From an uncultured Phycisphaerae bacterium (GTDB lineage: Bacteria; Planctomycetota; Phycisphaerae; Sedimentisphaerales; Anaerohalosphaeraceae): a stretch of DNA of 64,000 bases. A program made the position numbers and the translations under genes. The notes beneath the pieces were generated by a model that was not told the origin of the DNA, made no database searches, and saw only the letters and a program-made list of their open reading frames with translations. The DNA lies in NCBI GenBank assembly GCA_937949545.1, contig CALEDR010000002.1:62001-126000 (forward strand), written 5' to 3'. Shown here one piece after another: positions 28,558-31,942 of this stretch. Positions within the stretch are counted from its first letter, which is position 1; the number at the start of each line of letters is the position of its first letter.

Positions 28558-28631
<74 letters not shown>

Positions 28632-28853: not shown

Positions 28854-29456
28854 TTAGGTTTTGTCTTTTTCTGTGGATTGAGGTCTTAGTGCATTCAGGG
28901 CGTTGTCTGCCTCAACAACCGAATGCGCTGGTTTCGCAGTTTGGGCCGGTGGGAGGGGCTCCGGAAAACCCAGATGCTTCCGCAGCTGTTCGATGCTTCG
29001 CTGATATGACTTTTCCATGCAAAGTTTCCAGACTTTCTGGAAGGGTTTCCACGGATAGAGCCGGTCATTGAAGTCTTTGTGCCATTTTTCGGGGTCTCGC
29101 TTGAATGCCTCATACATTTCATCCATGCCCAATCGGCGCATCCATTCCTGCTCTTCCATCTGGCGTTCGAGCTGCCGCTGCAATTCCTCCTGTTCCTCCG
29201 GGTCCAGGTCTTCCTCAAACTCCTGTCGGGTTTCCAGCCATGCCTCCAGCGACAAAAACCGGTCGGTCTCTGTTTCGTTGGCAAGGGTGTCCGTATATTC
29301 CTTGAGCCACTTGAGCCAGTTGAAGATTTTGTACAGTTCACTGTGGATTTGATGGACTTGCTGTTCTCCTTCCTGAAGCCAGGCCAGTTCCTTTGGGCTC
29401 AGCAGCCATTTCAGAAGCCGCTGTTTCCAGCGGGGACGTGTTTGTTTTGCCGTCAT
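28854..29456 (-). CDS. Uncharacterised acidic coiled-coil protein
   Basis: A 200-residue soluble protein with no family that I recognise. The N-terminus is basic (KQTRPRWKQRLLKW). The middle has a charged helical region, EEDLDPEEQEELQRQLERQM and on, consistent with a coiled coil. Tryptophan-rich helices follow (FNWLKWLKEY, KWHKDFNDRLYPWKPFQKVW) and then a disordered tail. There is no signal peptide or membrane segment. It lies downstream of the ARPP-1-type gene on the same strand, separated by a folded element, and tail to tail with tRNA-Arg. Length, codon usage and the absence of a better overlapping frame support a real gene. Confidence 0.7.
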   Translation of the reverse strand: MTAKQTRPRWKQRLLKWLLSPKELAWLQEGEQQVHQIHSELYKIFNWLKWLKEYTDTLANETETDRFLSLEAWLETRQEFEEDLDPEEQEELQRQLERQMEEQEWMRRLGMDEMYEAFKRDPEKWHKDFNDRLYPWKPFQKVWKLCMEKSYQRSIEQLRKHLGFPEPLPPAQTAKPAHSVVEADNALNALRPQSTEKDKT

Positions 29457-29527
29457 ATTTCAACTCCTTTGCTGAAATTCTCCCGCTGTTTTCAACGTTT
29501 CCATTGCAATTAAAGAAAACGGTTAAC

Positions 29528-29653
29528 GGCGGCGGGGCGGAGGACGTCTCGGCTTAAAGCCGAGAGTCCTCCGCTGTGCAGAGAGCCGGGCTTTCCTATC
29601 AAGCCCTTCTGCCGCTATTCTCCCCTCGCCGCGAGCATTCTCTGCACGCCGCC
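29528..29653. ncRNA. Multi-hairpin structured element, class unknown
   Basis: Five nested or adjacent perfect stems in 126 bases. P1 is GGCGGCG (29528-29534) with CGCCGCC (29647-29653). P2 is a 17-bp hairpin (29537-29574) with TAA loop and one bulged G. P3 is GTGCAGAGA (29576-29584) with TCTCTGCAC (29639-29647). P4 is GGGCTT/AAGCCC (29588-29606) and P5 is CTCG/CGAG (29625-29635). Together they form a closed junction shape. P1 and P3 share one base, so they abut. It lies between two minus-strand genes and has no adjacent T-run typical of a terminator. It could be a structured RNA or a palindromic mobile (MITE/REP-like) element. Confidence 0.55.
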
Positions 29654-29678
29654 TATCTCCAAGGAGAACGCTGCCTGT

Positions 29679-30677
29679 TTACAGCATGTGCCGGGACCGC
29701 CTGAAATCGGGCGGCATTATTCTGTCTTGCCCGTGCTTGCGTCCGTCATTGGGGAACAAGGCCAGATGAATGACGGACTGTTCAAACCATAAGGCCTGTC
29801 CGAAGAGCTCATCGGATTGGAAGCGAAGTTCCTCTCCGAGTCCGACGGCCTTAAAGAGCTGGGTTTGACATCGTTTCAGGCCGTCGAGAAAGAATCGAGC
29901 GTTTTTTTCGTCGAGCGGTTTTGCGGGTTCGTTTCTCTGCTGGAGCGCCTCGAGGGCATAAGCAGCGGTCAGACGCGGCCAGATTTTTTTCAGGGTGTCG
30001 GGCTTATCGAAAACATCGAGTATCAGCACCCGTCCGCAGATGGCTGCGGCCACTCCGCAGGCTCCTTCCGGGTAAGGGAGGGCTTTTATAAAATCCTTCC
30101 AGCTGTCTTTTTGCTGGTCGAAGATATCTTTCATAGCTTTGGTCGGGGAAGGGACTTTGAGGCAATGGAGTGTTTGGTCCACCTCGTCCCAGATTTCGCC
30201 CTGATCAGCGATGGGTTGGCCGATGGAGCAGAGCGACTCGGTAACCCGGCAGGTTTTCGAGGCCCGCAATTTGGGGAACGAGAAGCCGCCGGAAACAAAA
30301 TCGGGCCGGCAGTGCTGCCAGCGGCCCTGTTCGACGCAGGAGACGGGAATATCCTGAACGGTTTGGGCCTCCAAAAGGATTGTGGTGTTCAGGATACGGT
30401 TTTGTTTGGCCCCGACGAGTTCTTCGCCGTCGAGCAGAAGGATGCGATGCGGACTTTTGTTTTCGACACGCAGGGAATTAACTTGTCCTGCTGTGCTGAC
30501 TTCCCGGACAGTCAGCAGCCCCTGCTCGATGGCTTCGGAAGCCAGCAGATAAGAGACCGAGCCGTTCAGTCCGGCCAGCGGAACCAGAGTTAAATTCCGA
30601 TGGCTTAGCGGCGGTCTGGTTTGAAGTTTTTCGGATAACTCTGCAAGAATTTGTACTCCCCTAACTTCTTCGTTCAT
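29679..30677 (-). CDS. ARPP-1 / DUF6569-type domain protein
   Basis: A 332-residue protein whose core LLLDGEELVGAKQNRILNTT followed by IPVSCVEQGRW matches my memory of the ARPP-1 (DUF6569) domain. That domain is associated with ADP-ribosylation-related and phosphatase genes and has no proven activity. There is no signal peptide. The start is ATG 30677, chosen because AGGAAGAG stands about five bases upstream. A longer frame to 30761 would run through a dispersed repeat. Downstream on the same strand come the folded element and an unknown gene. A WYL-type regulator lies upstream on the same strand. Confidence 0.72.
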   Translation of the reverse strand: MNEEVRGVQILAELSEKLQTRPPLSHRNLTLVPLAGLNGSVSYLLASEAIEQGLLTVREVSTAGQVNSLRVENKSPHRILLLDGEELVGAKQNRILNTTILLEAQTVQDIPVSCVEQGRWQHCRPDFVSGGFSFPKLRASKTCRVTESLCSIGQPIADQGEIWDEVDQTLHCLKVPSPTKAMKDIFDQQKDSWKDFIKALPYPEGACGVAAAICGRVLILDVFDKPDTLKKIWPRLTAAYALEALQQRNEPAKPLDEKNARFFLDGLKRCQTQLFKAVGLGEELRFQSDELFGQALWFEQSVIHLALFPNDGRKHGQDRIMPPDFRRSRHML

Positions 30678-30756: not shown

Positions 30757-30931
30757 TTCAAAGTTTGTTCGTTCCTTGTTTACTATACAGGGATGGTCTG
30801 ACAGAGCTGGTCAGGGGATTTTTGGGGGGGGAGGCGGATGGGGATGACAGAACTGGTCGGACCTACGATTTTTGGGGCCTGTAATTGAAAAAAAGAGCTA
30901 TAAGTAGGGGGTTGATGGGAAGAAAAAATTT

Positions 30932-31942
30932 CTAATTTTTTTGACTTTTTTTCTTGCCGGTGTAGAGCTGAATCGTTTGCTGCAGTTCCTGTTCGAGCTG
31001 CCGGATGAGGGATCGCGGCGTCAGGACTTGTGCGTGGGAGCCGAAGCTTAAAATCCATCGAATCAGCTCGGCGCCGGGGGCGATTTCAAATTGAACCAGC
31101 AGCCGGTCTCCGTGATCTTCAAGGATGGTTTGGGAGGGATGTCGGCGTGTTTCGCGGACGTTGGCGGCGGCCCAGCCGTCAAAACGGATGCGGATTTTGC
31201 AGGGTGGGGCGGATTCGAAAAAGATGCCGAAGCTGTCCTGTATGTGTCGGACGAGGGAGAAGTCGGCGGGTCGGCGGAAGGATTGGCCGGCGGCTTCGGC
31301 GCTCTGGATGCGGCTGACTTTGAGGGTACGAATTTCTTCGTATCGCTGCATCCAGCCGATGCAGTACAGGTCGCCGTCGAAAAAGATCAGACCATAGGGC
31401 TGATAGAGGGTTTCGTAGGGCTCAGGGTGCCGGGTGGATTGATACCGGAGGCGGACGGTCTGGGAGTCCTGAATGGCGAGGGTGAGGATTCGGATGACTT
31501 TGTCGTGGGCGGCATAGGTATTCAGAGCGGAGGTTTTGACCAGAAGATGCTCTTCGAGTCGTGAGAAGTATTCGAGGGTGCGTGGGGAAAGCATGGCCTT
31601 GATTTTCTCCAGGAGCGAGGCCAGACCTTCGCCGAATTGGGTGCCGGACAGAGGAGAGAGAAGTTTTTGGCTCAGGTAGATGCTGATGAGTTCTGTGAGG
31701 GTAAAGACGAGCCGGTCGCTTTCGATGAAATGGCGGCTCAATTTCCAGAAACGCTTTCCGAAATCCCGTTCTTCATAGGTGATGGGAAAGCCGAGCTGCC
31801 GGAGGATATTTAAGTCGCGGAGCACCTGCCGCTGGCTGCATTCGAGACGCTGGGCTAGCTCCCGGCTGTCAATACCGAAATAGACGGATTGAAGGGCTTT
31901 CAGGAGGTTCCACTGGCGGATCAATGATTGGCCGCGTGACAT
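30932..31942 (-). CDS. WYL-domain transcriptional regulator
   Basis: A 336-residue regulator with an N-terminal helix-turn-helix (LAQRLECSQRQVLRDLNIL, DeoR/HTH_11 type). The WYL sensor domain covers about residues 140-230 (TVRLRYQST, YQPYGLIFFDGDLYCIGW), followed by a WCX-type C-terminus (IRIRFDGWAAANVRE, RLLVQFEIAPGAELIRWILSFG). WYL proteins bind nucleic-acid or nucleotide ligands and control DNA repair, stress and defence genes. It lies upstream of the ARPP-1-type gene on the same strand with a 250-base gap. The C-terminus is very basic (GKKKSQKN). Confidence 0.9.
   Translation of the reverse strand: MSRGQSLIRQWNLLKALQSVYFGIDSRELAQRLECSQRQVLRDLNILRQLGFPITYEERDFGKRFWKLSRHFIESDRLVFTLTELISIYLSQKLLSPLSGTQFGEGLASLLEKIKAMLSPRTLEYFSRLEEHLLVKTSALNTYAAHDKVIRILTLAIQDSQTVRLRYQSTRHPEPYETLYQPYGLIFFDGDLYCIGWMQRYEEIRTLKVSRIQSAEAAGQSFRRPADFSLVRHIQDSFGIFFESAPPCKIRIRFDGWAAANVRETRRHPSQTILEDHGDRLLVQFEIAPGAELIRWILSFGSHAQVLTPRSLIRQLEQELQQTIQLYTGKKKSQKN

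What the first reader, a model, noticed from the sequence alone, without database searches (positions are those of the whole stretch)
29528..29653. Five-stem folded element between the ARPP-1-type and unknown genes
Within 126 bases there is a closing stem, a 17-bp hairpin, a second long stem 62 bases apart at its base, and two inner hairpins, all essentially perfect. It is not a terminator. Either an unrecognised structured RNA or a palindromic mobile element would explain it.
Basis: seen in the sequence. Interest (0 to 1): 0.6.

Follow-up and report, generated by a model that had tools for sequence, protein, structure and literature searches.

The report
Structured RNA beside a WYL regulator
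A five-stem folded element in a planctomycete genome is kept, with matching changes on both sides of its stems, next to one gene regulator that appears to have a single target promoter, so it is probably an unrecognised RNA switched on with a stress or phage-defence locus.

Summary
The folded element at 29528-29653 is real. It is single copy in its genome and matches no Rfam family. I found four relatives: three in congeners and one in another genus of the family. All keep the three-way architecture (closing stem P1, hairpin P2, long stem P3 with inner hairpin P3a), though P1 is weak or absent in the other genus. Stem arms change in a compensating way, and CCCUUCUGCCGC is invariant. This supports a structured nucleic acid; a MITE/REP is not supported.

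The constant neighbour is not ARPP-1 or the unknown gene but a WYL-domain regulator (window 30932-31942). In the genus, element and regulator are present or absent together in 6 of 6 genomes. Behind the WYL gene lie two tandem operators and a PafBC-like promoter (TGTCAKACC-N7-TANNNT) pointing at the element. The operator has no other intergenic match in the four congeners that carry the regulator, and none in the two that lack it. In two of five genomes no gene of recognised family lies between promoter and element.

Best reading: a WYL-controlled structured RNA of a stress or defence locus. Transcription, folding strand (pair evidence 6:2 for the opposite strand) and action are not shown.

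The parts
29528..29653 (.). The element: three-way-junction fold P1/P2/P3 with inner hairpins P3a and P3b. The functional strand is unresolved. Context (WYL promoter) points to the - strand; G-T versus A-C pair counts lean weakly to the + strand.
29528..29533 (.). P1 5' arm GGCGGC (pairs with 29648-29653); G001 has GACGG/CCGTC, a compensating G-C to A-T change; not clear in G025
29648..29653 (.). P1 3' arm GCCGCC
29537..29574 (.). P2, 17-bp hairpin; the stem is kept while sequence and length vary among relatives
29576..29585 (.). P3 5' arm GTGCAGAGAG; TGCGGAA in G025, matched by TTCCGCA on the other arm
29638..29647 (.). P3 3' arm TTCTCTGCAC
29588..29606 (.). P3a inner hairpin GGGCTT/AAGCCC
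29604..29615 (.). CCCTTCTGCCGC, identical in all five copies (GCGGCAGAAGGG on the - strand)
30932..31942 (-). WYL-domain transcription regulator (HTH_11 + WYL + WCX), the gene that always accompanies the element
30841..30858 (-). Operator 2 (distal), GACCAGTTCTGTCATCCC
30795..30812 (-). Operator 1 (proximal), GACCAGCTCTGTCAGACC; the two starts are 46 bp apart
30782..30803 (-). Candidate WYL-dependent promoter TGTCAGACC-N7-TATAGT, reading towards ARPP-1 and the element; only match of its pattern in the 64-kb window
29679..30677 (-). ARPP-1 domain gene (likely ATG at 30677, counted from the translation), between promoter and element here and in G003 and G004; no match reported in G001 and G025
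28854..29456 (-). 200-aa ORF of unknown family beyond the element; in the genus present only in G000 and G004, so not part of the conserved unit

Best explanation
The element is a structured noncoding RNA (or the structured 3' part of a transcript) made from a promoter that the neighbouring WYL regulator controls. Proposed course: (1) the WYL protein sits at two tandem GACC-N4-CTGTCA operators just behind its own gene; (2) on a signal, probably single-stranded nucleic acid as for PafBC and DriD, it lets RNA polymerase start at TGTCAKACC-N7-TANNNT; (3) the transcript runs through ARPP-1 where present and then the element, or directly into the element (G001, G025); (4) the folded RNA is stable and acts through its three-way junction and the invariant GCGGCAGAAGGG/CCCUUCUGCCGC strand, most likely by binding a protein or an RNA during the stress or phage response. 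Shown by computation: conservation, compensating changes, co-occurrence with WYL, position of the operators and promoter, and rarity of the operator in the genomes. Inferred: that the WYL protein binds these sites, activation rather than repression, transcription, strand, and everything in step 4.
For: Structure: z -4.0 to -6.2 for all five elements on both strands, 0 of 200 shuffles each. On a four-sequence alignment fitted to the model, 3 of 34 pairs changed on both sides (shuffle mean 1.0; 18 of 500 shuffles as high); sliding partners by 1-3 columns drops paired cells from 94.8% to 38-56%. Adding the fifth member by hand gives two-sided changes in P1 (1), P2 (4) and P3 (3). Co-occurrence: within the genus 4 of 6 genomes have the WYL gene, the same 4 have the element, and the other 2 lack both. 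The other-genus copy was found by looking downstream of the WYL homologue. Promoter: the pattern occurs behind WYL in 5 of 5 element loci and once in the 64-kb window (expected 0.11). Operator: exactly two copies, both behind WYL, in G000, G001 and G004; two plus one inside an ORF in G003; none in G002 and G005. G001 and G025 have no ARPP-1 or other gene of recognised family between promoter and element. In G001 and G003 the gene beyond the element has its own sigma-70-like promoter, so the element is not simply its leader. Not translated in register: 1-base indels inside the element between relatives about 90% alike.
Against: No transcript data. Only five members, four from one genus, so covariation statistics are weak. 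Strand unresolved: of eight pair columns with a wobble or an A-C, six keep a G-U on the + strand (against the WYL transcript) and two on the - strand (plus one P2 pair counted by eye). In G025 an open frame of 138 codons crosses the element; it has no Pfam match and nearly flat position GC, but coding is not excluded. In G000, G003 and G004 the element could be just a 3' UTR. Most WYL homologues of the class lack it: 1 plausible hit among the 26 loci, the one in G025.
Confidence: 0.55

Rival explanations
1. It is a 3'-end or insulator structure: the strong P2/P1/P3 stems stop or protect the WYL-driven transcript before the next gene, with no separate RNA function.
For: It lies at the downstream end of the WYL unit in 5 of 5 genomes. 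Next genes have their own promoters in G001 and G003. In G025, P2 is followed by a T6 run and is terminator-like. It directly follows ARPP-1 in three genomes.
Against: No terminator-like site at the element in the scans of G000, G001, G003 or G004. A terminator needs neither the three-way junction nor the unpaired-looking invariant CCCTTCTGCCGC and the nearly unchanged P3 interior (98.6% and 93.2% identity to G004 and G003 against 86.8% and 78.9% for P2).
Confidence: 0.2
2. It is an RNA from the opposite (+) strand, an antisense or independent sRNA whose transcript opposes the WYL unit.
For: Six pair columns keep G-U on the + strand and two on the - strand (and, for one pair, by eye). Minimum free energy is better on + in G003, G001 and G025.
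Against: 6:2 is not significant. Energy is better on - in G000 and G004. No sigma-70-like promoter was found on the + strand upstream of the element in the window, G003, G001 or G004; the one + strand match in the G001 region lies beyond the element. In G025 the best model-strand match lies more than 120 bases upstream.
Confidence: 0.15
3. It works as folded single-stranded DNA or as a cruciform: a recombination site next to which defence genes are swapped, or a DNA ligand of the WYL domain.
For: The sequence on the left changes abruptly at the element: 200-aa gene (G000, G004), cas genes (G003), Mrr_N gene (G001). WYL domains of PafBC and DriD bind ssDNA (PMC11804915, passages; PMC10693628, passages).
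Against: No attC core (GTTRRRY or RYYYAAC) and no flanking direct repeat. Single copy in the genomes where it was found. The left neighbours with own promoters may simply be the next genes.
Confidence: 0.07
4. A palindromic mobile element (MITE/REP).
For: Strong inverted repeats.
Against: One copy per genome. Own-genome search gave only 18-36 bp partial matches besides itself. No hit in plasmids, only 26-bp partial hits in phages. Conserved position beside WYL.
Confidence: 0.03

Closest known systems
WYL-regulated loci (PafBC of mycobacteria, DriD of Caulobacter, SiwR, BrxR)
   Same: HTH-WYL-WCX regulator next to its target; palindromic operator between -35 and -10 as reported for SiwR (PMC10693628, passages); inverted-repeat binding as for BrxR (PMC9122601, passages); promoter resembles the PafBC motif TTGTCRGTG-N8-TANNNT (recalled, not seen in a call).
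   Different: The targets named in the passages read are protein genes. Here, in two of five genomes, the only conserved feature behind the promoter is a structured, apparently noncoding element.
RtcR-controlled rsr-yrlBA-rtcBA operon with Y RNAs
   Same: A stress regulator with an oligonucleotide-binding domain controls an operon that also carries noncoding RNA (PMC7790460, abstract start and passages).
   Different: Different regulator class, partner proteins and RNA; no Y-RNA family match here.
Candidate structured RNAs of CRISPR operons (PMC9067536)
   Same: Structured element next to cas genes in G003.
   Different: A term search of that paper's main text gives no WYL, Planctomycet- or Phycisphaer- match; only one of the five loci has cas genes next to the element.
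Rfam 15 families
   Same: None at gathering threshold over the element.
   Different: Best matches at E 0.26-10 are chance-level miRNA and other models far below their thresholds.

Membership tests
Conserved structured RNA | Fold more stable than shuffled sequence in homologues | tested here: met
   5 of 5 elements, 0 of 200 shuffles each
Conserved structured RNA | Compensating base-pair changes | tested here: met
   modest statistics (18 of 500 shuffles as high), few sequences
Conserved structured RNA | Transcribed as RNA, strand known | tested here: inconclusive
   promoter context on - strand; pair-type asymmetry 6:2 for +; no expression data
Known Rfam family | Match at the curated score | tested here: not met
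MITE / REP palindromic repeat | Several copies with shared ends in one genome | tested here: not met
   single copy
Integron attC site | RYYYAAC / GTTRRRY core sites | tested here: not met
   none in 29500-29690 on either strand
Intrinsic terminator | GC-rich stem directly followed by a T run | tested here: not met
   (window); met only in the G025 copy for P2 on the WYL-sense strand
PafBC/WYL-dependent promoter | TGTC-type motif about 7-8 bases before TANNNT, near a WYL gene | tested here: met
   8 of 23 WYL loci scanned, including 5 of 5 with the element; the PafBC consensus itself is recalled
PafBC/WYL-dependent promoter | Bound and activated by the WYL protein with ssDNA | not testable with these tools
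   needs protein biochemistry
Retron noncoding RNA | Adjacent reverse transcriptase gene | not tested
   No dedicated RT search was run; the neighbouring proteins scanned gave ARPP-1, WYL, oxidoreductase and no-family results, none an RT.

The most novel reading that the evidence does not exclude
A WYL regulator with one target promoter controls an RNA-only output: in at least two genomes the sole conserved product of a DNA-damage or phage-responsive promoter is a new structured RNA, which acts as a defence effector or as a feedback ligand for the WYL domain.
Probability: 0.25. Interest if true: 0.8.

Novelty: new variant of a known kind. Interest (0 to 1): 0.58.

Why it matters
WYL regulators are widespread around phage-defence loci, but the outputs described in the papers seen here are proteins. 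A structured RNA tied to one such regulator, with a motif that marks the regulated promoter, would add a noncoding component to defence or damage responses in Planctomycetota and gives a compact, testable locus: one regulator, two operators, one promoter, one RNA.

Tried and rejected
Mobile element: rejected on copy number, absence from plasmids and only short partial phage matches, no direct repeats. Known RNA families: nothing at threshold, only chance-level hits with E up to 10. Integron attC: no core sites. Leader of the downstream gene: rejected because the downstream gene differs (200-aa unknown, cas6, Mrr_N, a convergent gene) and two of these have their own promoters. ARPP-1-dependent element: rejected as general, since ARPP-1 gave no match in G001 and G025.

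Searches that led nowhere: ARPP-1 and WYL proteins in viral contigs; pattern scans of viral contigs (1 and 9 loci; none supported by the model); genome-contig scan (16 loci, of which only L029 and L037, the G003 and G001 records, score as real). The model search of 198 relatives missed the G025 copy, so other distant copies may be missed too. MAFFT alignments misplaced G001 and G025 in parts, so the pair table uses helix arms picked by hand, and the model-based count leaves G025 out. In one search, 8 of 397 genomes matched; I dropped 3 (L133-L135) as chance because they lack the CCC before TTCTGCCGC, by eye only. In some searches the extra operator matches in G003, G025 (2) and one in G210 lie inside ORFs. 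PafBC motif wording is recalled: the paper sought for it was not held. One helix string (P2in of G001, 3' arm) was located by the script at a second, wrong place; the pair letters used are those of the hairpin.

Full report
The observation. Both strands fold far better than shuffles (z -6.3 and -5.7, 0 of 200 each). No Rfam family matches.

Copies. The own genome has one copy. BLAST against 59 genomes (own included) gave G004 (93%), G003 (88%) and G001 (78% over part of the element); the other hits were 24-27 bp. A covariance model built from the four found, in 198 genomes, only those four.

What travels with it. The next gene on the left differs: a 200-aa ORF without a family in G000 and G004, cas6 and then an HD-domain gene that looks like cas10 in G003, an Mrr_N protein in G001. 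On the right the WYL-domain regulator is always there; ARPP-1 lies between in G000, G003 and G004 but not in G001. In the genus, 4 of 6 genomes have this WYL gene and the same 4 have the element; G002 and G005 have neither, although both keep the adjacent aminotransferase and the gene after it.

A copy in another genus. WYL homologues were sought in 397 genomes. Of 26 homologue loci scanned with the model, one gave a plausible hit: L068 (G025, same family, WYL 59% identical), 24 bits, E 0.04, about 470 bases behind the WYL stop and in the same orientation. Its stem P3 reads GUGCGGAA/UUCCGCAU where the genus has GUGCAGAGA/UCUCUGCAC, so pairs changed on both sides and stayed paired. P2 is a different sequence but still a hairpin, and CCCUUCUGCCGC is identical. 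The weak score alone would not be convincing; position plus motif plus paired changes are. A pattern for this core in 397 genomes found the five and three matches that look like chance.

Pair evidence. On the four-sequence model alignment, 34 pairs are 94.8% paired, 3 pairs changed on both sides (shuffle mean 1.0, 18 of 500 shuffles as high), and slid partners fall to 38-56% paired. With G025 added by hand, two-sided changes are seen at P1-2, P2out-5, P2in-1, -3, -5 and P3-6, -9, -10. Against a clean strand call, columns with G-T on the + strand number six and columns with A-C (G-U on the - strand) two, one of the latter counted from the sequence and not in the script. Energies favour + in three and - in two of five.

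The promoter. Behind the WYL gene and on its sense strand, all five loci have TGTCAKACC-N7-TANNNT, 127-134 bases (198 in G003) after the end of the aligned WYL region. The pattern occurs once in the 64-kb window, expected 0.11. In all, 8 of 23 WYL loci scanned have it; 15 do not. The wider site GACC-N4-CTGTCA-NN-CC occurs exactly twice, 46-47 bases apart and both behind WYL, in G000, G001 and G004; twice there plus once inside an ORF in G003; and not at all in G002 and G005; the reversed control pattern hit once each in G002 and G004. In G025 one site lies at the WYL locus and two inside ORFs. So in these genomes the regulator appears to have one target promoter. In relatives of the class the same site lies before ARPP-1 (G325), a cse1 gene of a type I-E CRISPR system (G328), an AAA_5 gene (G037, two sites 47 bases apart) and an AAA_23 gene (G295), which fits a defence or damage regulon. 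WYL regulators activated by ssDNA (PafBC, DriD), and SiwR with a palindrome between -35 and -10, are the nearest known systems (PMC11804915 and PMC10693628, passages only).

What the transcript would carry. In G000, G003 and G004 it would be ARPP-1 then the element. In G001 the element follows the promoter within about 60 bases, with no gene of recognised family, and the Mrr_N gene has its own sigma-70-like promoter (TTGCCA-16-TATGAT) beyond it; cas6 of G003 likewise (TTGAAA-17-TAATAT). In G025 the next gene is convergent, and a terminator-like P2 plus T6 ends the element. An open frame of 138 codons crosses the G025 element, without Pfam match and with nearly equal GC at the three codon positions (0.54, 0.51, 0.57, against 0.53, 0.38, 0.55 in the WYL gene), so I take it as non-coding but cannot exclude it. 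Within the genus, 1-base indels in the element argue against a conserved frame.

Conservation. The P3 region is more conserved than the ARPP-1 coding sequence (98.6% and 93.2% against 90.7% and 87.1% to G004 and G003), P2 less (86.8%, 78.9%), and the stretch from element to next gene much less (70.4%, 43.7%).

Conclusion. That it is transcribed, on which strand, and what it does are inference. Literature searches for a WYL-linked noncoding RNA and for Planctomycetes structured RNAs listed no description of it (search listings and abstract starts seen); these cover open-licence PMC papers only.

Noticed in passing
window 30782-30858 (-): Two tandem palindromic operators (GACC-N4-CTGTCA) and a PafBC-like promoter behind a WYL gene; the same promoter pattern recurs behind WYL homologues in several genera of the class.
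   Followed up: yes
L145:2500-2563 (+) (G037) and L148:283-300 (+) (G328): The same operator away from the WYL gene, before an AAA_5 ATPase gene and before a type I-E cse1 gene: possible distant defence targets of the regulator.
   Followed up: partly
L043:1-8000: CRISPR-repeat-like stretches (repeated peptides in the mechanical ORFs), cas6 and a cas10-like gene directly beyond the element in G003; cas10 label by eye apart from the HD and Cas6 Pfam matches.
   Followed up: partly
L068:2840-2880: A second CTTCTGCCGCCTAT motif (model strand) between WYL and the element in G025, similar to the invariant core motif; meaning unknown.
   Followed up: no
L068:2691-3107 (+): 138-codon open frame behind the WYL promoter crossing the element in G025, with a ribosome-site-like stretch before an internal ATG; no Pfam match.
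   Followed up: partly
window 29654-29678: Short stretch between ARPP-1 stop and element with a TCTCCAAGGAGA inverted repeat, conserved in G003 and G004 (92% and 84%), outside the described element.
   Followed up: no
window 28558-28631 (+): tRNA-Arg (TCT), the only tRNA and the only Rfam gathering match of the window; near the variable left flank.
   Followed up: no
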